A stretch of 64,000 nt of DNA from Tetmemena sp. SeJ-2015. Its lineage: Eukaryota; Ciliophora; Spirotrichea; Sporadotrichida; Oxytrichidae. The notes beneath the pieces are model-generated. The model had not been told where the DNA came from and did not search any database. It was given only the letters and a program-made list of their open reading frames with translations. A program made the position numbers and the translations under genes. The stretch's first letter is position 1; each line of letters begins with the position of its first letter. The stretch is from contig JAJKFJ010023569.1 of NCBI GenBank assembly GCA_027382625.1, forward strand, positions 62,001 through 126,000, written 5' to 3'. Below, in pieces: positions 22,682 to 52,589 of the stretch.

Positions 22682-22779
22682 TTTAGTAAAATAAAGATTA
22701 TAGAATTTAACTTTGGCGCAACTTTTATTCTATTGTTTTATCCTGAGAAATTCAAATTACTTCTATAATGAGAGATGCT

Positions 22780-24576: not shown

Positions 24577-24742
24577 ACTTAGATTTTATAATATTTATTA
24601 ATCATCATTTCTAAACTATTTTACTAGTAGTACCTTTAGATCTATAACTCGACACTAATTAAACTCTAGCTTTTATAATAACTAGTAACTTTGGTAATTT
24701 GCAATAAAGTGAAAGTTAATTTTACTATGATTTGCTGTTGTT

Positions 24743-29193: not shown

Positions 29194-29453
29194 ATTTTAT
29201 AATAATGTTTTATAAAGCACTTGGTTAAATTATTAAACTTTCACTCTCACCATCTACGTTTTATTATCGCAAATTTATTTAACCAAATGTCTTATAATTA
29301 AATTTCAAGGTGTTCTGATTCAGGAATCATTTGGTTGAATTAAATTCCTATTCTTACCTATACAATTTCATCATCAGCTAGTGAATATCTAAAACTAATC
29401 TTCAGACTATGGAAATGTATAGTCTGAATTAATTTTTGAGATTAATTAAAAGG
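29194..29453. other. Spacer with hairpins next to the orphan HECT segment
   Basis: AT-rich. Contains AACCAAATG (29281-29289) complementary to CATTTGGTT (29328-29336), with GATTC-AG-GAATC (29317-29328) inside, and a perfect 10-bp stem TTCAGACTAT/ATAGTCTGAA (29401-29428). The second hairpin ends 26 bp before the scrambling pointer. Confidence 0.6.
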
Positions 29454-29466
29454 GATGTTGATCTTT
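29454..29466 (+). other. 13-bp scrambling pointer, downstream copy
   Basis: GATGTTGATCTTT. Identical, in inverted genomic orientation, to 52577-52589. It marks the join between the minus-strand HECT part and this plus-strand part. Confidence 0.85.
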
Positions 29467-29993
29467 TGAAGAGACATACCAAGTATGGAGGAGATAAGAA
29501 AACAACTATACTTACAGAGGAGAGTCGCCGCATCAAGTGGTTCTGGGAAGTCCTCAGAGAATTTACTGAGGAGGATAAGTAGAAGTTTATAAAGTTCTGT
29601 TGGGGCTAACAAAGGCTTCCTGCAAATGATGAAGAGTTTGACCGTCGCTAAGTCAGATTCATGATCAAGCCATCTATCAAGAATACACATGGAGATGGAG
29701 CTCTACCAAAGGCAGATACTTTTTAATTAGAGCAGAATTTAAAGAGAGAATGTATGTATGCATCATGCATATATGTTATTACTTGCTTCTTCAACTTGGA
29801 ATTGCCAGACTACAGCACCAAGGAAATCATGAAGCAGAGAATACTGCTGGCTATTTACACAGATAGTGATTCTATGAATGCAGAAGCTGAACATGCAGCC
29901 AACATTCATTTAAGTGACCCTATGTCAGGCGGACCTGGAAGAGGAGCAATCATGGAGAGACATTTGGATCAATCCTATGACGATGAGTATTGA
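29454..29993 (+). CDS. HECT E3 ligase, terminal segment (inverted relative to rest of gene)
   Basis: Encodes the HECT C-lobe: DVDLLKRHTKYGG, RRIKWFWEVLREFTEEDK, FIKFCWGQQRLP, then LPKADTCFFNLELPDYS with the catalytic Cys in TCFF, STKEIMKQRILLAI, and a Gly/acidic tail ending at UGA 29993. The IES at 29717-29784 separates LPKADT from CFFNLEL. There is no start codon and no HECT N-lobe here. The segment begins exactly at the sequence GATGTTGATCTTT (29454-29466), which recurs on the minus strand at 52577-52589 where the HECT N-lobe stops. Joining there gives CGKNIVDVDLLKRHTKYGG, the normal HECT sequence. This is therefore the last macronuclear-destined segment of a scrambled gene. Confidence 0.9.
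29717..29784 (+). other. IES before the HECT catalytic cysteine, pointer TACTT
   Basis: TACTT at 29717-29721 and 29780-29784; 63 bp removed gives LPKADTCFFNLELP, the HECT active-site motif. Confidence 0.9.
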
Positions 29994-30121
29994 GCAAAAT
30001 CAGCAGAGCAATATTTTGTATCAAGAAAGTAGTCATTCAAGTTCCTTTAATTTCAATTCTTTAAACCTTAAATCAAACTGAAAATTATTTTAAATGATTA
30101 AGTAATTATGAAGATTATATA

Positions 30122-30835
30122 TCAGTAGTCACTCATTATTTCACCACAGTCGCTAATGTAAACTTGCTATCTACATACTCCGCTCTAAGAACCTACCTTA
30201 CTCACATTATATAGGATCTCCATTCCATTGATGACTTTTCCAAATGCAACATGATGCCCGTCAAGATGTGGATAAGCATCTAGAGTAATAAAGAATTGAG
30301 AGTTATTGAAATTCTTCATAGTGGGCTAAGTACCATCATTGCTGTTCATGCTAGGAGGTTTTGACATTGATATAATGCCTGCTCTATCATGCGAATGGTT
30401 AAAGTTCTCATCTGGGAATTTCAGTCCATAGATAGATTCTCCACCCAGACCATTATTTCTGTGAATGTCTCCTCCTTAAAGCATGAAGCCCGGTATTATT
30501 CTGTGAAAAAGGGTATCTTTATAAGACAAGAGCTTCTTTGGTTTCTCTTCTTTGCCTTGCATATTTGATGAATTAGCCGATAACTCGCTAACGATTTAAC
30601 CATCAGGGAGTTGAGAATCATTTGCAGTGTTTTATACCGGAGGCTGATAATGCTAGCAGTATCCTTTCTCACCAGTGCAAAGTGCTCTAAAATTTTCAGA
30701 AGTCAGAGGGGTATCTCCAAATAACTGAATCTCAACCCTGCCTTACAAAGTGCCAGAGAGACTGATCTCGAGATATACTGTCGCTAAGATGTCCTCTGTA
30801 TTATTTGGATTGCTGGGGTCGTCTACAAAATTCAT
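30122..30835 (-). CDS. Cyclophilin-type peptidyl-prolyl isomerase
   Basis: Catalyses cis-trans isomerisation of prolyl bonds. Starts [17 protein letters not shown] at 30835. Family motifs in order: [41 protein letters not shown] (catalytic Arg and the Gln-Gly-Gly-Asp), [42 protein letters not shown] and the terminal V(Y)ISDCGEI. An insert of about 35 residues between TGEKGY and FHRIIPG is unusual; such inserts occur in divergent cyclophilins. A 21-nt GTGAGT...TTAG intron precedes the last exon; UGA at 30122. No IES was needed. Probably cytosolic or nuclear. Confidence 0.9.
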
Positions 30836-31058
30836 TCTTTAAAAAATAATTATCTTTATTCAAGCTTTTCTACTCTAAGTGATTAATGAGTAAAAAAGTA
30901 AATATTCATTCACAGTCTCGAATGCAATTAGAATAACTTTATTTATAATCCTTCTTCATTAAGGCATTATTAATTTGCAAAATTCAATAAAATTCACATT
31001 TATATTGCTCATCATTTAATTCTTAATTTAGAATTTATTAACTTCTAGATTTGGAATA

Positions 31059-31695
31059 ATGAAAGCCAATACAGAGAATTACTTAAGTGAAGCATAAAAG
31101 CCAACTCCAAATACATAATGCCATAAATTTGTAATAAGTCGTCCGAGAACTCAAAAAATAGGTTATGAAAGGCTTTAATAACATTCGCACTAAGCAAAAC
31201 TAGATTATTTTTCGAGAATTTGTAATTTATAGAAATTTTATTTTAGATAAGAAACTCATAAAGTCTGCATTATAATCTTAGGACTTACTCTACAATTATC
31301 ATTATGCTCTGCAAAGGAATAAGCTCGCAGCCCAAGAGAAGGAGTGCGTTTTCATAGGATTGAAAATGGCAGAATATTTTACAATTTAATTTTTTTATTT
31401 GAGATATTTGAAGTTCCCTCTAATGATCCTGAACTATAAACCAGTTCAGACTATTCCTATGATGAAAGCGAGTAATTGAAGCATAGAAACAAATGAAAAA
31501 GCAAATATGAATACAAAATCGGAGAATTTTCATGATGAAGAGATTATCACCAAAAAGTCGGCCATTTAAAATGGGTGGTCATTCAATGTGGATGAATAGC
31601 TTAGTTAAGATGAGGTTTGGCAACAGCATCTCTTGAAAGAATAATTTAAAATTTAAGATATGAGCTAAAAATAGCTTCACAGTAAACAAAGATGA
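31059..31695 (+). CDS. Hypothetical cytosolic protein
   Basis: Not recognised. Starts MKANTENYLSEAQKPTPN. A coherent central segment reads HYALQRNKLAAQEKECVFIGLKMAEYFE when a pointer-type IES of about 30 bp near 31375-31410 (TTT repeats) is removed, followed by PSNDPELQTSSDYSYDESE and a Q-rich end (SQKQLHSKQR, UGA 31695). Frame changes indicate one or two additional introns or IESs near 31150-31300 and 31500. It may also belong to the following gene, whose own start is missing. Confidence 0.4.
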
Positions 31696-31739
31696 TTATC
31701 CTATATTATAAGTTATAAATTGAAAATTTACTTCAACAA

Positions 31740-33152
31740 GGAACTTGGCAACTACTACTCCTGTATCATAAGATTCTTACACATGCGTAGTATGCATGGA
31801 TAATAACTTTGATTACTGTTAACCTAAGTCTAAAGGCATGTTTGTCTACGATTCAGCTGGCATTTGCGATGATTCCACTGTAACTAAGGCCTTAAATCCA
31901 ACTACTCCCTACTACTGCTCAGATCAGAAAATTAGAAAAGTCTATCACTTATTAAACAATCATACTGATCAGTTTTATACCTACTACAGATATGAGTTTC
32001 TGTCATTTTTCCCATGCCCGTTTTTCACTCAGAAATGTGGGTCAGACACAGCTCAACTTACTATTTCAGAAGAGGAGAAGACTATTGACACCTCTCTTAT
32101 GAGTTAGGGAGATGTCTGCGTGTTTGAGATTTCCTACAATAAAGTTGACGATGATCTTAAAGTTTGCCTAATTTTTGCTTGCGTATCTATTTTCTCATTA
32201 TATTTTGTTTGGTTCTCGAAGACAACGAATGTTTAAGTTACTATAGCTGATGGATTTAAATAGCACCCCTACTCAATAAGTGGGAACTTCACTTTCGTGA
32301 GCAGGTTATTAAAAAGCGATGAGGAATTTGAAGTGGGCGACTACTGGTATAACATCACAACTCCTGGAAAAGCCTATCTCTTCATTAAGTGCACAGCTAC
32401 CTACGGATATGCCTCTTTCTCTTATGGCAAAAAAGGACTACTCCCTCAATGGGCTCTAATCCTCATTATAGTAGGATCTTCTGTGGTTGGTTTGGCTTGC
32501 CTTTTCATTTGCTTCTGCTATGTTCGCAGATTGCAAAGAAGAAAGAAGTTGGCAGCAAGTGCTGGAACCTCAAAAGTTCAGAAGTTCCAGAGAGTAGAAA
32601 CGGCAGAAGATCGTATAAATAAGTACAAATACAAATCTGGAGCTCTGAGCAGGCAGTCATTGGCCACAAAGCAAAACTAAATCAATTACTAACCTGAGGT
32701 TTACCCTGGCATGATGCTAGCTGGAGATGGGAAATATAAACTAGATGACTTCAGCTAAATAACTCCACTAGACGGATCGCAAGTGCCAGCGCTTATGCCT
32801 AATCAAATGTTTGACTTCTCTAATATGCAAGATTCTACGCAATCCCACCAGTCTGCGCCTCACCAGAATAATATATATTACCTTAAGATATAAATATTAT
32901 TTTTATCTGGAGAATAACCCAATAATCAGTATGGATCCTAACGCTTATGCGCCAGTTAATAACTTAGATTACACATAAATGGAGCCAAATATGTATGGAC
33001 CTGGAGGCCCAGAGGTATAAAACTATCCTATGGAGCAAGATAACGCAATGAACTCTTAATAAACTTAAGAATAAGTAATAGAAATATTACTTCGTTTCTT
33101 ATTTAAGTTTATCCACATAATTATCCTTTCTAAATGCCAGGGTAAATGTGAA
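31740..33152 (+). CDS. Type I membrane protein with Cys-containing ectodomain
   Basis: The ectodomain contains paired cysteines (TCVVCMDNNFDYC, YYCSDQ, CPFFTQKC, GDVCVFEI). One membrane helix, WALILIIVGSSVVGLACLF, is followed by CFCYVRRLQRRKK and a long N/Q/P-rich cytoplasmic tail ending PFQMPGQM at UGA 33152. The IES at 32162-32211 disrupts the ectodomain; removal gives DLKVWFSKTTNVQVTI. Another pointer-type insert lies near 33070-33110 (TAAG repeats). No signal peptide or ATG is visible upstream of about 31740, so the N-terminus is incomplete here: either spliced from upstream or on a separate germline segment. Function unknown; probably a surface receptor. Confidence 0.65.
32162..32211 (+). 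other. IES in type I membrane protein, pointer GTTTG
   Basis: GTTTG at 32162-32166 and 32207-32211; 45 bp removed joins DDDLKV to WFSKTTNV in frame. Confidence 0.75.
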
Positions 33153-33780
33153 CATTCATAAGCTAAAATATTGATTTATTTAAAATGGGAACTCAATTTT
33201 TATTTGTCTTTCATATAATTTCATCTCATCTCATTGAATTTATTTATTTTTATTAAATTGAATAACGGAGATTAAATATATTTTAATAGATTAATCTAAG
33301 TAAATATTTTGTATTTAAATAATGTCACAATTGTGAATATTATAATATCTGCATGGATTTTTTAATTCTATTTAAAGTATTTTCGATTATTTTGTTTGTG
33401 GTGATGGATATAGCAAAGGGTTGTAAATTTATTTATAGTTATAAGTAAGAATCATAGCTATTGTATAAGCTAAGTAATATATGTTAGTGCATATCCATCT
33501 CCTATTCTGAATATAATTCCATTTAGAAAGTCATTTTAATTTCCAATATTCTACTTATGAGGACAAATAAATTTTGATAAAGAGTAAAGAAATTTTATCA
33601 AATTTATTTTTAAGGTTCCAAGTAAATCTCACTCTAAATTATTGGAAATTAAGTGATTGAATCTTGTTAAGCTTGTAGTTTTTCCCTTTATAAATTAATA
33701 TGTACTAAAGCATTATTGTAAGAAGAAATCAGATAATTGGTTTGACAACTAGGTCCTTCTATACTATAGACAATAGATTT
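33153..33780. other. AT-rich spacer
   Basis: No coding frame or RNA gene seen on either strand. Confidence 0.5.
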
Positions 33781-34812
33781 TTTGACAAAACCACATCAAA
33801 TCTAAGAATAAATTCTGTCTCCTTTAAATCTAAATTATTATTTTTTTAAATCGTGAAGATGTTTTGACAAATTCTAAGAATCCTTTAATATTTTTAGTCT
33901 TGCTAAATCAGCCAATATATTTGAGCCTGCTTAACTACTTTCTTAATTTACGATCTCTCGAAACTATAGTTGTATGTGCAGATGGAGGAGCTAACTTTCT
34001 ATTTGAAATTATGAGAAATGAAGCTATCTCAAGTATAGGAGATGGATCTAGTGAACTAAATAATTCGCAACTAATAAGATTAAAATAAAATATTGGATTA
34101 ATTTAAATTAAAAGATAGATACCTTAGGCTATTATAGGAGATTTAGATTCTTTGAAAGATGATGCTAAGGCATTTTACAATTATTAGATTATTTATTATC
34201 GCTTTAAAAAAAATATTTTTACAAATCTAGAGGAACTTAATTCATATGTTTGCAAAGTGATTAAGATACTTTAATAATTTTATCCATATTAAAATTTTAT
34301 GACACAAACGATCTTGAAAAATGTGAAAATGAAATTTAGAAAATGAAGGCCAAGTTTTAGCTTGAGAATCCTTAATCAAAAAATCTATAGTCATCTTCTA
34401 TTTATCTTGGCGCTTTTGGAGGGAGGTTAGATCACACTATTTAGAATTTAAGTTTGCTTTTCAGGTTCCCTTATCAATAAGATCACTCTTTTATAAAAAT
34501 ATAAGTTACAAATAATTTATTAACTCTGCTTACATGTTAGGAGAAGAGTCTATGGCGTTTAAAGTTCCAGCAGGCAAATCTGAAATAACCTGCAGTAACA
34601 GATTTGAAAAATCTGATGGAGGGATAGGAATTATACCAGGAGAGGAAAGTATAGTGTCAACTTAGGGTTTGAAATGGGATTTAAAAGACTATAAAACTTC
34701 GCTGAGGAAGAAAATATCCACTAGCAATTAGAGAGTGCGGGACAGTGTCCTCATACAATCAGACTAAGATCTTGTTTTTATCAGCTAATTTAACAAAGAA
34801 ATCTTATGCTGA
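33780..34812 (+). CDS. TPK1: Thiamine pyrophosphokinase, paralogue 1
   Basis: Transfers pyrophosphate from ATP to thiamine. Motifs: ETIVVCADGGANFLFE, AIIGDLDSLKDDAKAFY, a divergent DQDTLIIL in place of DQDTTDLEK, YLGAFGGRLDHTIQN, GIIPGEESIVSTQGLKWDL, and a C-terminal STSNQRVRDSV block; UGA 34812. The reading frame changes between these motifs (about 34110, 34240 and 34480-34620), consistent with introns or IESs I could not place exactly. The start is uncertain: no ATG is in frame directly upstream of KNPLIFLVLLNQP. Tandem neighbour of a more canonical TPK at 35193. The altered active-site region suggests divergence or loss of activity. Confidence 0.7.
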
Positions 34813-35192
34813 AGAAGAATAATTCTCTTTCTTCTGTTGAACTTTAATCTAATTTAATTGTCTTATTTTTTTGTAATTTCAAATATTTATTAGATTCTAT
34901 TAGGAAATGATCATCTTAAAAGCTTGAAAAATAAAAATATACTCATTTCATAGTCATAAACAACAACGACTTAAATCCAAATTTAGCTAGATAATTAAAT
35001 ACATCTATTAACTTCTTTTTTAAAGATAAAAGTAGAAACATGGAAAAAAATATTTATAAAAATGAATGAATGTAAGAAGAAAGCCAAACTTCTAAAAATA
35101 TTTAATCATATTAAAAATCATCTTAATTATTCCTATATTTCATGAAGAGAACATTATTGAAATTTTCTATTTGATAAAAAAAATTATTGATA

Positions 35193-36112
35193 GCATGGTG
35201 AGTCAATTAAAGGAAGAAAACCTTCACTTAGACAATAGCATCCTAGACAGTTTCAGAGAATCAAGTAACCTAAACTCATTAAAGTTAATCAATTTTCACA
35301 GATTAAATTAAAGATGGATTGACTTTCAAAACTTACTTGATAATCTTGAATCAGCCTGTGAGTTACAAGTTGCTCTCCACTTGTTTTTCAATGACTGGAG
35401 ATCCAGTGATAATTTGCGCTGACGGTGGTGCAAACAGACTCTACGATACTATAACGCACAAATTTCTTACTGAAAAAGAAAGCGAGGAATAAAAAGGGCT
35501 TTTGTTCAAGAAATATCTGCCTAAGTTGATAGTGGGGGATCTAGATTCAATAAGACCAGATGTCAAAGACTTTTATTCTGAGCTTGGAACTGAGGTGAGA
35601 GATTTATCTCATGATCAGGATACCACAGATTTAGAGAAGTCTTTAAAAGCAGTTCAGAAATTAATTGAAGATGATGGAAATATAGACTCTTAAGAGACTC
35701 AGATAAATATTTTGACTCTTGGCTCATTTGGAGGAAGACTGGATCACACACTAAGAAATATGATGGAGTTGCATAGGTAGCCTTTCTCTCCAGAAAAAGC
35801 TTTCTTCTTAGGGGAGGAGTCTATTGCGTTTTAAGTTCCTCAGGGTAGAACTACTGTGACTTACTCTAGTTACTTGAGTAGCTTATTTTAATATTTTTTT
35901 AAATGAGTCTGTACACACTTGTGGAATAGTGCCTAGTAGAGAGACTCGTATTAAAACGAGAGGATTAAAATGGGATCTCGGAGAAGCCCCATGGGATAAA
36001 ACTAGCATGGATACACAAATATCAACTAGCAACGAAAGGTAGCAATAAAATGTAGAATTTGAACTAGACACTGGAATAATATTCATATTTAACTAGATCA
36101 AAAATAAAATGT
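35193..36112 (+). CDS. TPK1: Thiamine pyrophosphokinase, paralogue 2
   Basis: Makes the cofactor thiamine diphosphate. Starts MVSQLKEENLHLDNS. Core motifs: LIILNQP, PVIICADGGANRLYD, KLIVGDLDSIRPDVKDFY, HDQDTTDLEKSLKAV (the metal and thiamine-binding DQDxxD), LTLGSFGGRLDHTLRN, then after a frame break near 35880-35905 CGIVPSRET and TRGLKWDLGE. The break is probably a pointer-flanked IES (TGAGT repeats flank part of it) but the exact junction is unresolved. Tandem duplication with paralogue 1, same strand. The 3' end is approximate because UGA is far away in this frame. Confidence 0.8.
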
Positions 36113-36471
36113 TATTTTAAAAACATAAAAAATTAATTTATAATAAAATAAACACAACAGAAGATTAATTACCATAGAGAAAAATTATTTTTCCTCTTCT
36201 AGTTATTTATAAAATTAAATAGTAAATTTAATTAAGCTTTATTAAATTTAAACATATCTTATTTTGTATTTGTATGATTGTATTTAAGTATTTTTAAATA
36301 TATTCATAAGCACTATTAGTCTTGAGTATTAACAATGAATAACTTCTTCTATACTATTTTGTTTTGGCTTACTACTTATTTTGATTTATGATATAAGAAC
36401 ATAATCTAATGAAAGAGAAACTTATCTTTCTCTAATTTAGATTTTAATAATTTCTAATAAATTTTAATTTG
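36113..36471. other. AT-rich spacer
   Basis: Nothing recognisable on either strand. May include the true 3' end of TPK paralogue 2. Confidence 0.4.
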
Positions 36472-37026
36472 ATGGCAGAAAAATTAGTATCAAAGTCTAC
36501 TGATTTCAGAGACTTTTGCAATCATATGACAGTTTTCGCTGAGAGCTAGCTTGACTTCCATCGCTAAAACTACTACGGACTTAGCGTAAGTACTAATCAC
36601 TGATACTTTAACACATGAATCGACTGAGAGATGGCAATAATTTATCTATAGTAACAAGTGTATAAGCGAATAATGAAATGCTATGAAGAGCCACGCATGA
36701 CAAATGAAGAAACTGACTCTTGTGCAGCTGTTCACAGAGACTATATGCAGAAAATATAAAAGGAGCTCACTCAAAGCCTAATGTAAAAGAGTGTAAGTTT
36801 TTGCTCTAAAATGAGTATGATAATTTCGAATCCTTCCTGTCTTTAATCAATAAACTTAATTCAATTTTCATTCTAGTAAGAACTTGAGGCTTGCACAGAC
36901 TTCTGCAAAAATGAAAAAGACATGCCCTGCATCAACACTTGCGGCACAAAATATCTTCAAGGTCTTCATAAAGAATTCGACTCAAGGCTTTTGAACTACA
37001 TTCAAGAATATAACAAAATAGTTTGA
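36472..37026 (+). CDS. Small helical twin-CX3C protein (small Tim-like)
   Basis: Starts MAEKLVSKSTDFRDFCNH. Two introns (from GTAAGTACTAAT near 36588, and GTAAGTTTTTGC near 36794) leave a helical protein of about 130 residues with MKCYEEPRMTNEETDSC, then CTDFC and CINTC. Two CX3C motifs in a short helical protein recall small Tim chaperones of the mitochondrial intermembrane space, but their spacing (seven residues between motifs) is shorter than usual. Ends QEYNKIV at UGA 37026. Assignment tentative. Confidence 0.5.
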
Positions 37027-37106
37027 GTTTGTCTTGATATAGATTGTTCAATTTAAAGTAATTAATCTCTAACTTAATTAATTACAAATTAAATTCAAAC
37101 TTAAAA

Positions 37107-37859
37107 ATGTACGACGGCTTCTATCTTGCGAAGAATTTAGTTCAAGCTCTTTCTTTGCTGGTTATCAATATTTGGTGCTTTGGTGGATTCGGTTTGGACA
37201 AAACCTTCGTCTTCATTTTCTTCGAAGGGCTTTGCTAGTTCCTAGTTCAGTTTGTAATTATTTGATCCATGATTTTAAATTCGTTTACAGATAAATGTCT
37301 GCGGCTACTTCACAAGCTCGGGTGGAAGAGTGCTTTTTAATTTGAGCTTCATTAGGTAAGATAATAGCTTCTAAAAAATTGTCTCATCTTTCCCTAAGTA
37401 TAGACAAGTGGCAGTGATGTTCGTGGAACCCTTTTTTGCTTTTATCTTGGCAGACTTCACAATCAGACTTTCCAACTTGAGAAATGAGAGACAGATCTCC
37501 TAAAAGCTGCAACCACTCACTCTTTTCATTGGCCTCATCAGCTTACTGAGACTTTTATCCTTGCTACCTGACCTCTTTGTAATTGAAATTCTTATAAATT
37601 TTGACTAAAAATTAACTTTGTAAATGTTGAGAACACAGTATTTATAAACTATGAGGGCGCTAGCTACTACAAACTCACCTTCGCGGACTCTTTAGCATAT
37701 CAAGCAGTAGATTTTCTCATCATAAGTTACAGTCTAACCCTACTAACATTCGCTGCTGTCTGGTTAAAGCGAAAATACCTATTGCTCCTTTGGGCCTTCA
37801 AACTTGCAGCTTTGCTTGCAAAACTTGTCATTGGCTTCTAAAGTTTAAGAAATTTCTGA
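37107..37859 (+). CDS. Multi-pass membrane protein, unknown
   Basis: Starts MYDGFYLAKNLVQALSLLV. Three short GT-AG introns (37 nt at about 37250, then near 37356 and 37578) separate exons. Hydrophobic segments: LVQALSLLVINIWCF, FVFIFFEGLCQFLVQF, VAVMFVEPFFAFILADF, LTLFIGLISLLRLLSLL, AVDFLIISYSLTLLTFAAVW and LLLLWAFKLAALLAKLVIG, giving about six helices in roughly 190 residues. No family recognised. UGA at 37859. Confidence 0.7.
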
Positions 37860-37902
37860 ATTAAATTCGAAATTCAAATAGCAGAGATAATAAAGTTTGA
37901 TC

Positions 37903-38139
37903 ATGGAAGATGGTCTAGAGTTAATTAATTTCTTGATCGTGTACTAGTACCTTGGAATGCAAACTTTGCTTTGCGATGTGGAGGACAGCAGAGAGAAGCT
38001 TGATCGCTTTTTCAGCTACAATTTCCTATTCTTTGATGACGACTGAGATGAAGAGAAGCTTTCTTTAACTAGATCTAACCTTTTTAGATAAATAAAAACT
38101 TATTTCTCTTACTGTATTCACCTCTTTAAATTTTGCTGA
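37903..38139 (+). CDS. Small acidic protein with a 12-bp IES
   Basis: Starts MEDGLELINFLIVYQYLGMQ and continues DVEDSREKLDRFFSYN. An in-frame UGA within FFDDD-UGA-DEEKLSL is removed if the GATGA repeats at 38035-38039 and 38047-38051 act as pointers, giving FFDEEKLSLTRSNLFRQ. Ends near UGA 38139. A coding-like stretch at 38200-38314 (FQFASLRKKETQSGG) may be a further exon. Function unknown. Confidence 0.5.
38035..38051 (+). other. 12-bp IES removing an in-frame stop, pointer GATGA
   Basis: GATGA at 38035-38039 and 38047-38051. Excision deletes exactly four codons, including UGA. Confidence 0.55.
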
Positions 38140-38406
38140 TCTGATTAATTGGGAGTTGTTGAGAAGTGATATATAAGTCATAATTAAAAACTAAAACTCA
38201 TAGCTGATTTCCAGTTTGCCAGCTTAAGAAAAAAAGAGACACAAAGTGGAGGACTGCCGCTTCTAAGAACACACCGCCATCAGACTCGTATCACTATGTC
38301 TAATTCATGAATTACTTGTATAATACTTTTTAAAAGGAACATACCATGAGAAGAGATTCTGACTTCAGAGATACTCGACCCGGGGAAATAACAGCAAAAG
38401 TAAAAA

Positions 38407-38524
38407 GCTATCAGCACGGAGGTTTCCCGAGCGGTCCCCCACCTCAGTACTAACAACGCCTTAAGCCGCTTAACTTCGGAGTTCGGATGGGATCCGGTGC
38501 ACATGGCTTAGTATGGCCGATAGC
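38407..38524 (-). rRNA. 5S rRNA: 5S ribosomal RNA
   Basis: On the minus strand the gene begins GCTATCGGCCATACTAAGCC and contains the conserved loop A-helix III segment GGATCCCATCCGAACTCCGA. The internal-control-region sequence AAGTTAAGCGGCTTAAGGC follows, and the end is CTGATAGC, complementary to the 5' GCTATCGG. Length about 118 nt. TTTTT follows at 38406-38402 as a Pol III terminator. It is a single copy in this window, located between protein genes and 260 bp upstream of the UBX gene on the opposite strand. Confidence 0.97.
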
Positions 38525-38786
38525 GATAGTCTACCGTCAATATCTCTATATAAACCAATGGGCACTACCGAATATCGCAACTTTTGTACTCTTACATATG
38601 CACTTGCTTTCTCCATAAACACCGTGCATTTAAGTTTCACTCTATTCCTTACATTCATTTAGCGTTTGCAATTTCTCGCAGATTTAAAATTCCACTCTCT
38701 TGACTCCTATATTCATAGAGAATTCGCAGATTGAATTGAATTGGAGTAAGAATTAATCAAACTTATTAACTTTAACTTTTCATAAA

Positions 38787-40270
38787 ATGGACTTCAAGAA
38801 AGGCGGTTGGAATCCCACAGCTGGGATGAACTTCGATAACATCTCATCTGATCTACTAGATGATAAGATGACTAAGAACATAATAAGCGATTTGAGAAAG
38901 AACCTCCCACCTGGAGGCTTCCCCAAGCACAAGCCTGTAATCACGGGAGGCACTCCAAGTTCTGGACTTGCATCAGGCAAGAATGCAAAGAGAGGCGTCT
39001 CTTCAAATCTGGGAGGTGCTGCTGGTGGTATACTAAGCTCGCATGGTGATGGTGACCTAGTCACTAAGATGGCGGCACGGTTGCAGTAACTTGAGTCAGT
39101 GAATCAGTCACTAAGAGCAGAAGTGAAAGAGAAGAGCTTAAAGATAGAGACTCTAGAAAAGGAAAACTTCATCCTCTAGACATCTGCTTCTCCTGATTTT
39201 ACTAGATCTTTAAAAGAGGCATAAGCAGAAAGAGATTCGTTTAAGCTGTAATGCAAGGAGATGGAAGAGTTTCTTGCTGACTATGGCTTGAAATGGGTGG
39301 GGAAAGACGGATAGAGGGAAGGAAAGTTTGACAAAAATTAGATCAATCAAGAGTTAGCTCATAACAAACCTTATTACAAAAATAACTTGCCATCCGAGAT
39401 AGATACAGAAGTTCTAACTAGAAGAATTGAAGAACTCAACTTCATTGCTGAAAAGCAAAGAGTCGTCAAAAATAAGGATGGCTTGCATTAGTTGCAAATT
39501 TTAGTATTTATAGTACTTAAAGATTTAAGTTCTAGAAGCACTCTGATGTACTAATTTTCTTCTTTAAAAACGGACTGATAATAAAGGGCTTCCCTTTCTA
39601 CCCTTACCATTCTTAAATAATATTATATGTGAACTTAAATTTATGATCTCGTGAAGCATAGAGTGTGCTTTCTGATATTCTAGACGGTTACTTCCCTTAT
39701 GATTTGAAAAAGAAATACCCTGAAGGTGTGCCCTTGAAGCCTGTGGACTGCACCGACGACACTTACTCAGCTGAAAACGTGAAAACTAACCCAAAATTCA
39801 AGGTTTTTGGAGATCTTGAGAAAGATATTAACCCTATGTCCAAGGAAGAATTCCTCAACCAATTCCCTAAACAAGTTATCAAGGAAGGTAATGTAATACC
39901 TATTAGAGAAGAGCTAGAGAAAAGGTTCCGTGACACTCAGGAGTTAGATGTTAATAAACTCAACTCTCACGAGCCTATAGTCATTGAGAACGATGTCACT
40001 CGCAACATTGATAACATTCCACCCACAGATATAGTCACTATGAGAGTCAGAACTGAAACTGGAAGAAGAAATCTCATCCTCAAGTTATTGGTAACTGATC
40101 AAGTAGGCAAGGTGTATGCTATGGTTAAACCATATTTGGAGAATAAGGGAAAGCCTTTTGAGATCAGAACTACCTTCCCTAACAAGGCATACCCTGAAGA
40201 TGAGTAGAAGACTTTGAAGCAGTTAGGATTAGCCCCTTCTAGTGCTTTAGTTATTTAACTTAAGCCATGA
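38787..40270 (+). CDS. SEP- and UBX-domain protein (UBXN11-like p97/Cdc48 adaptor)
   Basis: Starts MDFKKGGWNPTAGMNFDN. A Gly/Ser linker is followed by a coiled coil (QQLESVNQSLRAEVKEKSLK ...), a SEP domain (VLIFFFKNGLIIKGFPFYPYHSREAQ...DILDGYFPYDLKKKYPEGVP) and a C-terminal UBX domain (TMRVRTETGRRNLILKLLV ... SALVIQLKP, UGA 40270). UBX domains bind p97/Cdc48; SEP domains occur in p47/UBXN proteins, and the coiled-coil plus SEP plus UBX order matches UBXN11. A 32-nt intron (GTATTT...TTCTAG, about 39506-39537) and an IES at 39611-39649 split the SEP domain. The end VIQLKP uses UAA as Gln, direct support for the genetic code. Confidence 0.9.
39611..39649 (+). other. IES in SEP domain, pointer TCT
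   Basis: TCT at 39611-39613 and 39647-39649; 36 bp, containing a UGA, is removed to give YPYHSREAQSVLSDILDGYF. Confidence 0.85.
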
Positions 40271-40986
40271 AAAATTCTTTAAAAGTACGATCAATATTAT
40301 TTTGTGACTTCAATTGAATAAATTGTTTTACTATATGCTCGTATAAAGTATCAAGCATTTTATTTTTCCAGTCAATATCTCTGAGTCGAAGTCAACTTAA
40401 CCTCATCCATTTGTGCGTTTATTTGAAATTTTACAAAGTGCTGAGGTTGTGACTTGCCTGTCATTATGATAAATAAATTAATGATTATTCTTTCCTAATA
40501 TGATTATTTTATCTTAATTTTTGATGATTAGATAATGAAAATTAATTTAATTAAAATTTATAAATAGATTTTTAAATGACCTATTTTAATTTGTAAATAA
40601 CTCTAGATATAAAAAATAAACTCACGAAAATATAATTTGCTTATTTATTGTTAAATGTTGTCGAATTGGAAAGACCATAAGTTTATCTAATAACTTAGGT
40701 TATACTCAAAATAAGCCTAAAATTTAAAATGATCTAATTGTTTCATCATATGCTACAGTAGTCTGATTAATTCCACCTTCAACAATAAGAAATTCATCTG
40801 ATACAACCACCTTCAAACATATTTAAATTCAAAGCTATTCTTCAACGTTCTAGTTGCTTCAGAATAGTCTGAACTTTTTTATTTTAGCTTTCCAAGAGCT
40901 TTATATAATTATAGCTTACAACGACAACTCCTAGTTTTGAATAAGATATTAAGTATGTTGTAGTGGTAAGTCTTTTTAACTACTTC
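40271..40986. other. AT-rich region upstream of USP
   Basis: Mostly AT-rich. A frame from ATG 40654 (MLSNWKDHKFIQQLRLYSK) could be an N-terminal exon of the USP gene, but its connection is unproven. Confidence 0.4.
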
Positions 40987-44863
<3,877 letters not shown>

Positions 44864-44939
44864 TAATAGTCATTATATATTTAATTTTTACACTCGTTTC
44901 GTTGAATTTATAGCTCGATTTTAAGGATTTTATTTTCTT

Positions 44940-46382
44940 ATAAGGATATTTTATATAAACCAATGGCCGACAAGACGTCTCCGGCTTATTTAAATTACAG
45001 TTGGTGCGCTTCATTTGTACTCTAATAAAAGAAATTCTAAACGTCTAGAGCATGTTATTAAAATGATCAGTGCTATCATAGCGACTTTCTTCCTAGGGAG
45101 TATGCATTTCTTGGTCGTCGCTCATGACAGCTGATGATGCGGTAGTGCTGTTTAAAACTTTATCTAGGATTGGATTAATCCTACTGCTTAAAGAAAATTC
45201 TAAATCAATTGAGTTTTATTCTATTGCTATCACCACTCGGAGTTTATTTAATCTCTACTGAATCATAGAGTGTGTACTCTTTCCACTTCTTCCACCAATC
45301 CATAGCGACAAGGTAATACTCCTCACCGGCTTTTTAAGGAATGGCGGGCATTTAACTCAACATTAATTTTACAGTTTAAGCCTCATTTGTCAACTCCTCC
45401 TTGCTCTTTATTTAATGAGCAGAATATAAAAGATCTTAAAATATATAGCTACTACTATAAATTTTATGCTCCTATAATTAATTTTCTTTTGATTAAGATG
45501 AGGGAATTCCTTTTTCATTAGCTCTAATCTCTCAGTTCTCAATCGCTCCAGATCTTGCTTCTACTATAATAAATTTCCAATTTATAAATAGTATTTTATC
45601 CATTGCTTGTGCTTTTCCAGTTTTTCTTCCTCACTTAGCTCCTTTAAATCTCGCTGGTCCTCATCCTCTTATTCGATAATCAGTAGCATCTCAAGCACAC
45701 TCTTAATGTAATTTTCTTAATGTTAATTCAAATTAGTATTTATGCTTTTTATGATGACTCTATGCGTAGTTATTTAAAACTTCCTCCTCAGACTGAGTCA
45801 GATAAAAGAACAAGTATTCACACACAACATTTTATTCTTCAAGAGAGTTTTAATCAAATTATTTTTACAATAAGTGAGGGTCTCATAGAGAAGACTTGCA
45901 GTGCTCTGCCTCAGATCAGGTTTTAAGTTCTTATTTAGCTTATGCTTGAGGCTCAAAAGTAGGTTTATCATAGTGCGGAATACTTAATATTATAATCCAA
46001 AACTCAACAAATTCAGTAGAGGATTATAACTTGCTCCTTGAGTGGCTCTTTCTTGACAAAGTGCTCTTGAATGGCCGCAACTGCCTGTTTAGCTTCCTGG
46101 TCAGTGATTGAGAGGAACTAGTCAAAAGTCTGTCCAGTATTTTAAGCTGCGAACTTCTGTTTTTGTTTTTCCAAATTGTACTCACAGTATTCAATTTAAA
46201 AAGACATGTAAATTATCTATATCGATAGTTAATATATCATAGTATTCTTCAAAAGTAGGAGGGTAGACAGAACTGGTTTGCGAGAGTTATTTATTATTGC
46301 TGAGAGGCGGGGTTGCAGGTGGGTACTCCTTAGATTGTTTATCATTAGCTGGTTATGACTAATTTGCCCTTTTACTGCTCAT
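44940..46382 (-). CDS. DUSP-domain protein
   Basis: Starts MSSKRANQSQPANDKQSKEY at 46382. After the 7-bp-pointer IES at 46186-46247 the frame reads FEEYCEYNLEKQKQKFAAQN and FDQFLSITDQEAKQAVAAIQ. Downstream near 45330 is a DUSP signature, EEYYLVAMDWWKKWKEYT, and further on VMSDDQEMHTPQEESRYDS. DUSP domains normally accompany USP catalytic domains; here none follows, and the gene converges on the USP gene at 44863, so it may be a stand-alone DUSP regulator. The region between 45400 and 46000 contains several unplaced introns or IESs; the 3' end is approximate. Confidence 0.6.
46186..46247 (-). other. IES in DUSP protein, pointer GAATACT
   Basis: Plus-strand AGTATTC at 46186-46192 and 46241-46247; 55 bp removed gives PTFEEYCEYNLEKQK and corrects the frame. 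Confidence 0.9.
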
Positions 46383-46856
46383 TTTTAATATTCTAACTTC
46401 ACAATAGAATATTAGAATTACTATTTCAAGAATATATATATATATATTCATTAAATGTATTTCATTTTATTCCTGAGATTAATAAATAGATTATTAGCTA
46501 TATTAATTATATTTAAAATACAAAAACCATTGTAACATCTTGTATTAAATTTCATCTTCCCTTTATCATCAAAGCTCATGATATTAAAGAAAAATATCAC
46601 CACCAATAAAATATAAAATCATAATGAAGATTGTAATAAAGCTATCATAATTTTTTTTCATTTAAAAATAAATGCTATAATTTATTGAGCAATTTCTTTC
46701 CTAGCGTGAACCAATCATTCCCTATAAGTTTAAATTTCTTTTATCTATTTCTAGAAATTCTCATAAATATCACTGTAAGTGGTTTAAATGAAGACTATGA
46801 CTTAATAATTTGGAATTAACACTTTTATAAGTATCAAGTAAAATTTGAATAGATCA
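46383..46856. other. Convergent/divergent AT-rich spacer
   Basis: AT-rich, with an (AT)n run at about 46432-46448. No gene seen. Confidence 0.5.
46432..46448. repeat. AT dinucleotide microsatellite
   Basis: Eight consecutive AT/TA units within an AT-rich spacer upstream of the DUSP gene start. Confidence 0.8.
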
Positions 46857-47566
46857 TCAGTAGTCTTTAACCTGCTCTCTCAAAAGCTTAAACTCAGGAT
46901 TTTATTTCCATGTGCCAGTTTATGCCTTGTTGACTAATTTATCTTGCTATGTTTAAGTTACTGATTAATCTTATTAAGTTTCAGAAGTGATTTCACTTTA
47001 TTAAGCCTAAAAAATAATAAAAACTAACTATCATAAGGTATTAAAGCCCCTTCTTCTGCTGCATAAAATTCTTTCTTCCAAATGGGAACCTTTGTCTTCA
47101 GCTCATCGATTGCCCAAGCTACAGCATTCAAAGCTTCCTTGCGATGAGGTGACACTGCCACTATATTCACAGAAGCTTCACCAACAGGCTAAAAAGTAAT
47201 ATCATTATCAACCAAGCAACTAAATTTACTTGAAGAACTTAAGTTACTTATGATAAACTTACACATTCCCCTATTTTATGATAAATAGATATTCCTGATA
47301 AGTTGTATTCTTAAAGAGCCTTCTCTCCAAGTATCTGCATTTATTTTATTGCCATGGATTCATAACACTCATAGTGCAGAGTGACTACCTTCTTTCCATT
47401 GAAAGTTATTACGAGTTATTCCTGAGAAGCTGCCACATGCCCCGCATTCAGGTAGTTTAAGCTCATCCACCTGATCTTACAAAGTAGGTAGAGACGAGTC
47501 GGCATAGATTTTCACTTTCACTCTATCTGAAAGATTTTGCAGCTATGAGGCGTCAATTTATTCCAT
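46857..47566 (-). CDS. MOCS2B: Molybdopterin synthase large (catalytic) subunit
   Basis: Transfers sulfur to precursor Z in molybdenum cofactor synthesis, working with a MoaD-type small subunit (none in the window). Starts MEQIDASQLQNLSD. Family motifs: [91 protein letters not shown] near the end; UGA 46857. A 76-nt intron (GTAAGT...TTTTAG) precedes PVGEAS, and another insert of about 150 bp separates [10 protein letters not shown] from TWKQN. The frame is off by one base at 47410-47420: either one extra T in AACTTTCAATGG, or a 10-bp IES flanked by AATAACT repeats. Confidence 0.85.
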
Positions 47567-47689
47567 TCTTTATTATCTTGAAATGATTTACTGAAAATAT
47601 GGTAATTTCTATAAAATTTTAATTTGGAATGCACAAATTCATCTAATTTAATAGGTAAAGATATTTCGCAATAAACATATCAATCATAA

Positions 47690-50600
47690 ATGGTAGAATC
47701 ATCAACTCATGCAGTGAAGCAATCCACTGATCAAGACACTCTTGAGTTCTTCTTTAAAGGTCCCGTAAACTATAATTACCAATATAAATATCGTTTATTT
47801 TTTGATAATTTGGTTATCAGCTCTATGTTTCCACAAGATAATCAGTAACTCAAACGAGGGAGAAGAAGTGCCATAATAAGACAAAATATATCTGTTAGCA
47901 GGAGAGGGACCTACTCTGTCAGTTTATGATCTCCAAACTAAAAGCCTTGTGCAAAGCATTAAACTCTTTGCCTCCTGTTTCAAGATAATAGGAATACATT
48001 TGGCTAATGAATATCAATAGATAAATACTTTTAATGATGGAAATAGAATTGTGGTCAGCACAGAAAAATCACTGAAAGTTCTCTAACTTAAATCTGATAA
48101 AGAGTATGTATGATTATTAGTTTTTTAATGATCATAGTGGATATGAAGTTACTAACTCATTTGATAAGAGAGTCATGATAAAATAGTCCATAGTAGACTA
48201 GATGAGAATATTCTTTACACTATAAACGCTCACAATTTAATATTAAATGGGATGATCCCGTAATTATATTGAATTTCATAGAGAGCTGGGACTTGAACAA
48301 TATGACTTTGTTAAATCGCACTTTCTGTAACGAAGAGTGCATTCTTTACTCAGCAGACCTGAATTTGAAAACTAATCTGATTGCAGGAGGAACAGTATTT
48401 AGAACTATCTTGGTATGGGGAGGAGAGAGAATTGCAAAATGGAATCACCAAGACTAAATACCAACCGACGCAACCTCGTTGAAAGAGAATGCCTTGAAAG
48501 TACTTTACAAGTTGGAAGGACATGCAGGAGTGCTCTTTGATGTGAGAAATTAATTTTTTGTATGATGTGAAGTTTCTTTAAGACGATATTTTGGCGTCGG
48601 TTTCTGATGATCGCTCTCTTAGAATTTGGAGGCTGGATCTTAGCAAGGAAGGCGAATATCAGCAACTAAGTGAGTGCTATGGCCATCGCTCAAGAATTTG
48701 GAATGTTGCTGAGCTAGGTTTCGGAGGGATAATGGTGACAGTGAGCGAAGATGCAACTTGCAAGCTCTGGGAGTCTACCGACTTCAAGTCTACTTCAAAC
48801 AAGTTAGTTACTGCTAAGTTATTATGATAAAAGTCAATAAGTTCTATAAATTAATTGTGGAATAACCGATCGATTGAAACTCTGAAAGGTCATTCAGGAA
48901 AGAACGTGAGAGCTCTCACTTGCCTAGATGGCTTAATAGCCACAGGTGGAGATGATGGAGCCATCAAAGTATGGAAAGCAAAGGATATCTTAATCTCCAA
49001 GAAACTTCTCTCTCAAGATTCCAGACCAAAGAGGAGTCCAAGGAAGATGAACTTTAAATCAAGCATCTTTTAAATTATCCAAAATTATTGAATGAACAAA
49101 GTATGACTGCCAAGGAAACTGTAATAACGAAGATCAGAGTTGACATGCCTGAGGAGAGTGAAGCACTGCAAGAACTCAGAATGCTCAAAGAGCATCAGCT
49201 ACTCAAAAGGTAAAGAGAGAAAGAAGAGGAAGAGAAAAGACTTGAGGAAGAAGAAGCAAAGAGATTAGCAGAGACCGCCTCAGAGGAAAATAAGGAGACT
49301 GTCACAAGCCCAAGAAAAAGAAGAAAGCTTCTGTTCCAAAACCAAGGCCAGAGGAAAACGTCAACCAAATCAGAGCGATAGATATATTAGACGTTAAAGT
49401 GCAAGATGAAATCTTTCATTCTTTTTCTTCTAATGAGGCATTTTCGGTTCCAGTAATAGTAGCTGCAACTAACAAGGGTTCAGTGTTTGCTTTCGAAGCT
49501 AGATCAAAAGATGATATTAAATAACATTTACTCTATCAAGATGAACTACAGCAAAACATTCAGGATATTTAAACTATCAAATTATCCAAAGCCGCTATTG
49601 TTGCCTTTTCAATAGGAGAGGGGATGCTAAGGCTCCTTCTAATTACCGGAGAAAACGAGTCTGGTTAAATAGTAGGCAATGAAATTGCAGATTTGTAAGT
49701 TTCTGACATCAAACTCATTAATCTAAAATTATAAGCCTCTAAATTTAAATTGATTTAACTCTTGAACCTATTCTTGAATGTGGAAGCTTAAGATGAGAAA
49801 AATGTTTATTGACATAATACATTTTTTAAGAACTTTTATCTAATTAATACTTTAAGGAATTATTTAATCTTTTATTTAATCGTATTCTGCGAATATTTCT
49901 CTGTGATTGCTGCCAATGGAAGAGCTGAACTTATAGAGACTCTGTTTGTTTTCAATAAGCAACAAAAGAGTTGTAGGCAGTTGATTCCCTCCACTTAAAC
50001 TTATAAAGTGACTATCAAGACTCAATTCATTTGCCTCTAAAAGATTGATTCTTTGGGAGTGTTTGTTGCTGGAGATACTAAAGGCAATCTGTTTCTTTTT
50101 GACCCAACTACTAAACCTCCTAAGGATCATTTCATTTTCTTTTAATTACAATTTTATTGGAGGACTTAAAAGCTACCGACGCTGTGGGCCCTGATAGTGA
50201 GAAAATAGATCTCAGTTAAGTAATTCTCCACTATCAACAGTTAAAAGCACACAAAGATGAGCGAGTGCTTAGTCTCCATTACTCTAAAGAGTAGGGTTTA
50301 CTTTATTCCACCTCAAAAGATAACTACATCAACGTCTACAGCTTTGATAGTCAAAAGCATATTCAAAAAATGCAATCTATTAAGGAAGAAGATCTTAACT
50401 TGATCTACATCAAAAATATTTATTTTCTCTCAATAAGTAGTACTATTAGGAGAATATATATATATGATGATCTACAACATTTTCATGAGAAACAGAAGAT
50501 GATACTACAGGGCTTCTATGGAAACTTTGCCTACGTCTGGAATAAGCAAGAGAATATGCAGATATTCAGTATTGATACTAAAGGAGGAAACAGGCCCATG

Positions 50601-52026
50601 AGACTTAAAATCTAGGATGAGTCTATAATCTCTGACTAGCAATAATCATAGTAAATTATATAGTGATAAATTAAAATATGGGAGAAACTTTGTCTATGCC
50701 TACTCATATGGTGATTGCATTGTAATTTGCAATAACTGGCTTTTTAAGGACCAATACTAAGCTCTCTAAGAAGCAGGGTCAATGGAAAACTAATTCACAC
50801 TGAGGGACTCTCTTCACGGAAGAGAAATATTGACGTCATGTGGTTTACCGCTAAGTGAAGGTAAGACAGTTATACTTACAGGCTGTGAAGACTCTTTTCT
50901 CAAAGTTTCACATTTTGAAAGCACAAGCGATGGTTAAAGAACACTCTCAGTCAAGCAAACTTTCAGCAATCACGTTGCTTCAATTCGAACAATCACAAAG
51001 TCCAAGATAAAGGGATCTTATTTTATTCACTCTTTGTAATCAAATAGTTACTTGATAGTAAGTGGAGGTAGTCGCATGTAGGCCAACGTATTCTTAGGCC
51101 AGTATTCAAAAAGCAGTCCAGCCGATGCAGTCGATTTTAAAATGAGCCATATTTGTAACTTCATGAGGAGTAGTGAGCAAGATGAGGAACAAGACTTTAG
51201 AATAATGTCAAGTTGCATTATCTCTTAAACTAAAGGATTTTCATCTGCTAATGGACTTTAAAACGAACAAATTTCTTCTTAAATTTGGCAAGACAAGCAT
51301 CTCGAAGCCTACTGCTGTTTCGGAACTTCAAGTGGAGAGTTACAAGTTTTTAAAGTCAACTTCAAGAAGAGAAGACTTGAGGATTCGTATAAAATTATGC
51401 TTGCAAGCTCAGTCCTCTCTATGAAAAGGGTTAGAGTAGATGAATAAGTATGGCTTATTATTTGCGGACTAAGTAATGGAGATGTTTATATCCTTACAAT
51501 GGATTTGAGTAGTTAGGGATAAAGCAACTCTTTAGCTAATATATCTCCGCACGCAGAATTAAAGCAGGTTCATGATTTTGGAGTTAATACATTAGATGCT
51601 TCTTACAACTCACCACAAAGGAATTACTCATAGTTTCAGGTGGAGACGACCAGTAACTGTCAGTTATAAAGATGAAAAAGAATGCAAGTGAAACAAGCAA
51701 CTTCTAATTTGAGATAGAATCCTAATCCAAAAAATATGCTCTCTCTATTTATTTATGATATTTTTGCTCATTCCTCTTGCATAAAGGGAGTCGTATTAGC
51801 TAAATCTACTGGCGATGATAGTAAGATTCAACACAAAGTATTTTCTTCCTCATATGATTAGCGTTTCAAAGAATGGAATTTAGAGCAAACTAATTTGACC
51901 CTAGTTAAAACAAGCAGGCATTGCTTGAGTGATCTCAACAATATTTGCAAAATTAACACAAAGAGCAGTAGCCATTCTAGCTAATAAGTTGTTTTAGTTG
52001 GATAGGGAATCGCTGTTTTTAATTGA
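47690..52026 (+). CDS. WDR6: WD40 protein, WDR6/Rtt10-like
   Basis: WDR6 and yeast Rtt10/Trm734 support tRNA 2'-O-methylation by FTSJ1/Trm7. Starts MVESSTHAVKQS. WD-type blades: VYDLQTKSLVQS; GHAGVLFD...ILASVSDDRSLRIWRLDL; GHRSRIWNVAELG...VSEDATCKLWES; LKGHSGKNVRALTCLDGLIATGGDDGAIKVWK. Then comes a lysine/glutamate-rich insert (about 49100-49370), more blades (NHVASIRTITKSK, WLIICGLSNGDVYILTMD), and HDFGVNTLDA with SGGDDQQLSVIKMK at the C-terminal end, a WDR6 hallmark order. Ends VLVGQGIAVFN at UGA 52026. Frame interruptions at about 47780, 48110, 48550, 48830 and 49090 are introns or IESs not individually resolved. Confidence 0.75.
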
Positions 52027-52560
52027 ATTATCTTATTGAATTTTTAAGAGTGATATTGACTTGAGCGCTCTTGAACGCATAGATTTTTTGATTCATTGAT
52101 ATTGTAGAGTGAAGTGATGAAAGCAATGACTGACAAACTTGAATCCTTCATCAATTTCATTTGCCAAATCATGAGCGCTTATATCAACAGAAAGAAATAT
52201 GTTTGGATAAGTTAGAACTTTGGTATTTCCAACAATAGATTTTATAGTGAAAGATACAGGTAAAAATAAAAGGTCATCAAGCTTAATGATATAAATTAGA
52301 GACGAGGAAAGATTATAAAGGCATTAGCAAAATTATCATGAGGAGGACTTCATTATAAAAGATGAGAAGAGATAAGGAGGCTCATTATAAATTAAGATTA
52401 TTGGCCGATTGCTTTATTCAATTATGTCATTCAATGAAAATGTAATTCATTTACTCCAAATCTGGCTTGCATTTACATTTTTAGTTTGTCTTTTAAATTA
52501 TAAATTATAAATAAAATTTATTAAGAAATAAATTACTGTTCCAGACTATTAATTTGCCTT
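52027..52560 (+). other. Spacer with a short coding-like segment
   Basis: Plus-strand frame near 52120-52260 reads MKAMTDKLESFINFICQIMS then RKKYVWISQNFGISNNRF, followed by a basic tail; it could be a small gene or an orphan segment of a scrambled gene. Not recognised. The last 100 bp is AT-rich and borders the HECT breakpoint. Confidence 0.35.
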
Positions 52561-52576
52561 TATTTGTTTTGAATTT

Positions 52577-52589
52577 AAAGATCAACATC
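52577..52589 (-). other. 13-bp scrambling pointer, upstream copy
   Basis: Minus-strand GATGTTGATCTTT, identical to the plus strand at 29454-29466. It encodes DVDL at the HECT breakpoint. Confidence 0.85.

What the first reader, a model, noticed from the sequence alone, without database searches (positions are those of the whole stretch)
29454..52589. Scrambled HECT ubiquitin-ligase gene: last segment inverted and 23 kb away
The minus-strand gene at 54710-52577 stops inside its HECT domain at CGKNIVDVDL. The plus-strand segment at 29454-29993 starts with DVDLLKRHTKYGG and contains the HECT C-lobe and catalytic Cys. Both breakpoints carry the same 13 bp (29454-29466 plus; 52577-52589 minus) in the orientation needed for recombination. 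Neither part alone is a functional enzyme. About 15 unrelated genes, on both strands, lie between them. Scrambled genes are known in hypotrich micronuclei. What is unusual is an inverted join over 23 kb with intact genes nested between, and a break just before the active-site lobe.
Basis: partly seen in the sequence, partly recalled or inferred. Interest (0 to 1): 0.93.

Follow-up and report, generated by a model that had tools for sequence, protein, structure and literature searches.

The report
Scrambled HECT ligase gene, inverted end
In a ciliate's germline a ubiquitin-ligase gene is stored as two pieces on opposite strands 23 kb apart; they carry the matching tags a ciliate uses to rejoin such pieces, and the joined form is present elsewhere in the same assembly, so this is a real but known kind of scrambled gene.

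Summary
The 13-bp sequence GATGTTGATCTTT lies at 29454-29466 (+) and 52577-52589 (-), and nowhere else in the window even with one mismatch. Removing four pointer-flanked insertions and joining at the 13 bp gives one 823-codon frame with a HECT domain. Of 39 homologues, 33 run across the join in one alignment.

A contig of the same assembly, C5201, carries the two parts directly joined with one 13-bp copy. A second contig, C468, independently carries the window's left, scrambled junction. Between window and C5201, 440 joined codons differ by 44 synonymous and 1 non-synonymous change: this is a working gene, not a wreck.

Best reading: a hypotrich-type scrambled gene whose last segment is inverted and restored during somatic development. 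Inverted segments, long scrambled pointers and nested genes are described (PMC10901763, PMC9797194, PMC5940158). C5201 most likely captures the somatic join in a mixed assembly; a germline allele that is already unscrambled is not excluded and would be the novel case.

The parts
52577..54700 (-). Upstream coding part of the HECT ligase gene (reads 54700 to 52577); includes most of the HECT N-lobe; interrupted by three IESs
   Evidence: Homology to P0001 and P0003 from 54677 down to 52578, to others over parts of it; Pfam HECT on the joined protein. The 5' end is not defined: homology stops at 54677.
29454..29993 (+). Last coding part: end of N-lobe, HECT C-lobe with catalytic Cys codon 29784-29786, stop codon TGA ending 29993
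   Evidence: C468 and C5201 carry the same segment with 14 synonymous and 0 non-synonymous differences between them.
29454..29466 (+). 13-bp pointer copy GATGTTGATCTTT, 5' edge of the last segment
   Evidence: single copy in the joined contig C5201:8758-8770.
52577..52589 (-). 13-bp pointer copy GATGTTGATCTTT, 3' edge of the upstream part
53209..53266 (-). IES1, 58 bp, pointer CTCAT
   Evidence: Present in window, absent in C5201 with one pointer copy left.
53104..53151 (-). IES2, 48 bp, pointer TTAGT
   Evidence: Present in window, absent in C5201.
52800..52897 (-). IES3, 98 bp, pointer ACTAATT; 100 bp in C5201
   Evidence: Present in both contigs; excision at the 7-bp repeat restores the frame in both.
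29717..29779 (+). IES4, 63 bp, pointer TACTT, directly before the catalytic Cys codon
   Evidence: Present in window and C468, absent in C5201.
29994..52576 (.). Intervening 22.6 kb with other genes on both strands
   Evidence: 12 of 37 ORFs scanned in the interval with Pfam E <= 0.01, 8 over the curated cut-off.

Best explanation
The window is, by its code, its pointer-flanked insertions and the C4A4 repeats of the assembly, germline (micronuclear-type) DNA of a hypotrich-like ciliate that reads TAA and TAG as Gln. It contains one HECT-type ubiquitin ligase gene stored as two segment groups on opposite strands. In development of the somatic nucleus the conventional IESs are removed at their short pointers. 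The upstream part (ending at 52577) and the last segment (starting at 29454) are brought together in inverted orientation and recombined at the 13-bp pointer, keeping one copy. This yields a contiguous HECT ligase (823 codons from stop to stop). The intervening genes are presumably processed on their own. Shown here: the pieces, the pointers, the open joined frame, the joined sequence on C5201, the scrambled left junction on the window and on C468, and the scarcity of amino-acid changes. Inferred: that the join is made by programmed, RNA-guided rearrangement (described for Oxytricha, not tested here), that C5201 carries the somatic join through mixed germline and somatic reads (about 65%), and that the ligase is active.
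For: 13-bp pointers at both edges in the right orientation. Joined frame open over 823 codons with Pfam HECT E 3.2e-56, residues 430-733 of the 775 submitted. 33 of 39 homologues span the join in one alignment, 32 of those 33 with Cys at the catalytic position. C5201 has the exact join with a single 13-bp copy. C468 carries the left junction of the window within a 17.3-kb colinear contig. By a simple count, 44 synonymous against 1 non-synonymous difference over 440 codons, window versus C5201. The scrambled pointer (13 bp) is longer than the conventional ones (5, 5, 7, 5 bp), as reported for scrambled pointers (PMC9797194, passages). From 29,454 to 33,100 the window follows either the C5201 or the C468 allele at each variant site except two short clusters (3 and 6 bases) and two sites where all three differ, so it looks like a consensus of two haplotypes. 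At 32507 the window lacks a 47-48-bp insertion that both of these contigs carry, so insertion-free sequence enters this assembly.
Against: No telomere-capped somatic chromosome of this gene was found; every contig length listed is 10,034 bp or more, so short somatic chromosomes are probably not held. C5201 is not a pure somatic sequence: it keeps IES3, a 42-bp CTCA-flanked insertion that the window lacks, and 8.2 kb of germline-like flank. The right junction (52576|52577) was seen only in C1977 and C3719, which are letter-identical over the 20,000 bases compared and so not independent. The start of the gene was not found: homology begins 11 codons upstream of the Met I used as start, several homologues are longer, and no RanBP zinc finger, which two of the listed homologues carry, matched in the genome (0 matches). 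The evidence that both haplotypes carry the left junction is modest: in the last 330 bp before it the window and C468 differ at only three places, against about 5% further left.
Confidence: 0.9

Rival explanations
1. C5201 is a true germline haplotype in which the HECT gene is already unscrambled, so the species is polymorphic for scrambling. Either a 23-kb inversion scrambled one allele, or one allele was repaired from a somatic template.
For: C5201 keeps IES3, a 42-bp CTCA-flanked insertion, the 48-bp insertion at 32507, a multi-copy sequence beside its upstream edge, and 8.2 kb of flank colinear with the window. It carries its own alleles. Just left of the junction the window is unusually close to C468 (three differences in 330 bp), so the window may follow the C468 haplotype there.
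Against: Within 80 bp of the left junction the window differs from C468 at 29378, 29439 and 29444; with two haplotypes this suggests that both carry the scrambled left junction. Insertions are lost in a mosaic way: C5201 lacks IES1, IES2 and IES4, the window lacks the CTCA insertion and the one at 32507, and at 32507 both other contigs have it. So IES-free sequence does enter this assembly. IES3 sits inside the otherwise IES-free tract, which a single somatic-template conversion would not leave.
Confidence: 0.2
2. C5201 is a developmental intermediate: some IESs removed and the inversion resolved before chromosome fragmentation.
For: Mixed state of excised and retained IESs with germline flank attached. 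Partially processed molecules are described for actin I (PMC2394655, passages).
Against: [quoted passage not shown] C5201 keeps two inside the gene. Such molecules are transient.
Confidence: 0.1
3. The window arrangement is an assembly misjoin.
For: Right junction rests on one assembly path (C1977 and C3719 identical where compared).
Against: Left junction is also present on C468 with different alleles. An accidental misjoin would not end both coding parts at the same 13-mer, in frame.
Confidence: 0.04
4. The window copy is a pseudogene broken by an inversion, with a working copy elsewhere.
For: A joined copy exists on C5201.
Against: 1 non-synonymous against 44 synonymous differences over 440 codons; 0 against 14 in 158 C-lobe codons between C468 and C5201. 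The frame is open once IESs are removed.
Confidence: 0.03

Closest known systems
Scrambled genes of hypotrichs with inverted segments (for example actin I; PMC2394655, PMC9797194)
   Same: Segments on opposite strands, pointers at both edges, one pointer copy kept, scrambled pointer longer than conventional ones, conventional IESs in the same gene.
   Different: Only one scrambled junction was found here, no odd-even pattern, and the 23-kb gap holds other genes.
Russian-doll / nested germline loci (PMC5940158, PMC9797194)
   Same: Other genes lie between two segments of one gene; long pointers bridge other loci.
   Different: Whether each intervening gene is a separate somatic chromosome was not tested, nor whether they are layered.
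HECTD3-type HECT E3 ligases
   Same: Best solved-structure match by sequence of the joined protein is HECTD3 (E 2.1e-40); both lobes and catalytic Cys present.
   Different: The N-terminal half has no Pfam match at E <= 0.001; the start of the gene is not defined.

Membership tests
Scrambled germline gene (spirotrich type) | Coding segments out of order or inverted in the germline relative to the product | tested here: met
   Opposite strands, 23 kb apart; homologues run through.
Scrambled germline gene (spirotrich type) | Identical pointer at both edges, one copy in the joined product | tested here: met
   13 bp twice in the window, once in C5201:8758-8770.
Scrambled germline gene (spirotrich type) | Joined somatic chromosome capped by telomeres | tested here: inconclusive
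   Joined sequence found only on a contig with germline-like flank; C4A4 repeats occur in the assembly (24 forward and 43 reverse matches), none listed on C5201.
Scrambled germline gene (spirotrich type) | Join made during development | not testable with these tools
   No reads or time course available.
Nested (Russian-doll) locus | Segments of other somatic loci lie between segments of this gene | tested here: inconclusive
   About six Pfam-recognisable genes on both strands lie between the parts, but their somatic chromosomes were not seen.
HECT E3 ubiquitin ligase | HECT domain, both lobes, with catalytic Cys | tested here: met
   Pfam HECT E 3.2e-56, profile positions 25-300 of 306, on the joined protein; Cys shared by 32 of 33 spanning homologues.
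HECT E3 ubiquitin ligase | Thioester-forming activity | not testable with these tools
   Needs an assay.

The most novel reading that the evidence does not exclude
The germline of this ciliate is heterozygous for scrambling at this gene: C468 carries the inverted, split form and C5201 a contiguous form that has lost several IESs. That would be a direct snapshot of a locus becoming scrambled by a single inversion with a 13-bp duplication, or of a scrambled locus repaired in the germline from a somatic template, an event that the discussion of PMC9797194 proposes as rare.
Probability: 0.2. Interest if true: 0.75.

Novelty: new member of a known kind. Interest (0 to 1): 0.4.

Why it matters
It is a clean, simple test case: one scrambled junction found, one long pointer, 23 kb with other genes in between, and an assembled joined form to compare with. 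If C5201 proves to be germline, it would show scrambling as a standing polymorphism and let the origin or repair of a scrambled gene be studied directly.

Tried and rejected
IES3 as a spliced intron: worked through by hand on the sequences. Some GT-AG choices restore the frame in the window copy, but none that I tried does so in C5201, while excision at the ACTAATT repeat works in both (one search uses it); rejected. A missing N-terminal RanBP zinc finger in the genome: 0 matches; a 30-position model is weak, so this is not strong evidence. Naming the species: no call names it. The rRNA search did not complete and I did not repeat it. The Strombidium and Halteria germline assemblies (52.0% and 42.4% G+C) do not fit the window, which is below 43% in every 1-kb bin. 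A wider survey of IES differences between allelic contigs was not possible, so the rate of IES loss in this assembly rests on a few sites. More than two haplotypes, or a mixed culture, were not excluded. Papers: of PMC9797194 I saw passages and sections 11, 12 and 19; of PMC5940158 the outline and part 1 of section 9; of PMC10901763 the outline and sections 7, 15, 17, 18 and 19; of PMC2394655 passages; other papers only as search listings. I did not look for a published distribution of distances between scrambled segments, so I cannot say how rare 23 kb is. Where the N- and C-lobe meet, and that somatic telomeres in this group are 20 bp, is recalled.

Full report
What is there. The 13-mer GATGTTGATCTTT occurs in the window only at 29454-29466 (+) and 52577-52589 (-), with up to one mismatch allowed. 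It is maximal at 13 bp, and about 0.002 exact chance copies are expected on both strands of the 23.1 kb between them. I compared the 16 proteins of the first homologue search with the window by tblastn, reading TAA and TAG as Gln. Ten match on both sides. Their upstream parts lie on the minus strand and end at 52566-52599, 7 of 10 at 52578. Twelve match the plus part, from 29445-29454, 6 of 12 at 29454.

The gene. Four stretches inside the coding parts are flanked by direct repeats of 5-7 bp: 53209-53266 (CTCAT), 53104-53151 (TTAGT), 52800-52897 (ACTAATT) and 29717-29779 (TACTT). Removing them and joining at the 13 bp gives one frame of 823 codons between stops, ending at the TGA at 29993. The 775 residues from a Met at 54644 match Pfam HECT at E 3.2e-56 over residues 430-733; the best solved-structure match by sequence is HECTD3 at E 2.1e-40. 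Of 39 homologues from two searches, 33 align across the join in one piece and 6 do not span it; 32 of the 33 have Cys at the catalytic position and one has Ser. Homology upstream reaches 54677, 11 codons beyond that Met, and several homologues are longer at the N terminus, so the start of the gene may lie in further segments that I did not find.

The joined form exists. Searching the whole assembly with the two parts gave three other contigs. C3719 is identical to the window over the 20,000 bases compared and is not independent. C5201 (10,034 bp) carries window 53645-52577 directly followed by 29454-38202, with a single 13-bp copy at C5201:8758-8770, and lacks the insertions at 53209-53266, 53104-53151 and 29717-29779. 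C468 (17,297 bp) runs colinear with the window from 17919 to 36037, apart from a 929-bp element and small indels, and so carries the window's left junction.

How the contigs relate. From 29,454 to 33,100 the window agrees with either C5201 or C468 at each site where these differ, except two sites, and switches between them at short range; it differs from both only in two short clusters, at 30854-30858 and 31481-31486. In 158 C-lobe codons the counts add up exactly: window-C468 9, window-C5201 5, C468-C5201 14, all synonymous. The window therefore looks like a consensus of two haplotypes there. At 32507 both C468 and C5201 carry a 47-48-bp ATTT-flanked insertion that the window lacks. With two haplotypes, this loss is best explained by somatic reads or polishing; more than two haplotypes were not excluded.

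What C5201 means. For a germline reading: C5201 keeps IES3, a 42-bp CTCA-flanked insertion that the window lacks, the insertion at 32507, a multi-copy sequence beside its upstream edge, and 8.2 kb of flank. For a somatic or chimeric reading: the insertions differ between contigs in a mosaic way, the window shows the same kind of loss, and within 80 bp of the left junction the window differs from C468 (29378, 29439, 29444), which suggests that both haplotypes have the scrambled junction. This last point is modest, because these are the only differences in the 330 bp before the junction, against about 5% further left. I put about 65% on a somatic join caught in a mixed assembly, 20% on a contiguous germline allele, and 10% on a developmental intermediate.

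Function. Window and C5201 differ by 44 synonymous and 1 non-synonymous changes over 440 joined codons, by a simple count: 39 and 1 in the upstream part, 5 and 0 in the last part. This argues for strong purifying selection on both parts and against a broken pseudogene.

What lies between. I scanned 40 ORFs in four Pfam calls, 37 of them inside 29994-52576; 12 of the 37 had a match at E <= 0.01, 8 of them over the curated cut-off. The 8 point to cyclophilin (-), two thiamin pyrophosphokinases (+), a UBX/SEP protein (+), a USP-type deubiquitinase in two ORFs (+) and MoaE (-). Below cut-off are a DUSP match beside the deubiquitinase, WD40-like matches in two ORFs (+) and a weak SARA_C match.

Comparison with what is known. 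Pointers, conventional IESs, inverted segments and nested loci are described for spirotrichs. Scrambled pointers are generally longer (PMC9797194). Inversion alone accounts for 69.4%, 45.0%, 37.7% and 21.4% of scrambled chromosomes in the four species of PMC10901763 (section 19). In Oxytricha 1301 of 15,811 somatic contigs (8%) have segments of others nested within their germline locus (PMC5940158, section 9). The locus is a new example of a known kind. The open and more interesting question is whether C5201 is germline.

Noticed in passing
window 27211-28139: 929-bp element with long inverted ends, present in the window and absent from allele C468, beside a TA repeat; many related copies, matching on both strands, elsewhere in the genome. 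Looks like an insertion of a foldback/MITE-like element.
   Followed up: partly
window 32507: A 47-48-bp ATTT-flanked insertion is present in both allelic contigs C5201 and C468 but absent in the window, inside an open 475-codon frame: the window is probably not a pure germline sequence here.
   Followed up: partly
window 33786-34672 and 35202-35906: Two neighbouring thiamin pyrophosphokinase genes; C468 is 6-16% divergent from the window across 33.1-35.5 kb while C5201 is nearly identical.
   Followed up: no
L019 (C5201) 9791-10000: A multi-copy sequence lies about 27 bp from the upstream edge of the HECT part; 17 other contigs besides C5201, C1977 and C3719 are listed, three of them at 97-99%, matching it. 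Two of these copies, L035 and L036, are alike only on one side of the point where the C5201 match ends.
   Followed up: partly
G000 contigs C298, C334, C508: Contigs of 16.6-21.2 kb end in exactly 20 bp of C4A4/G4T4 repeat, the form expected of somatic telomeres (recalled); they may be long somatic chromosomes or germline-somatic chimeras. Several other contigs have the repeat at their first base.
   Followed up: no
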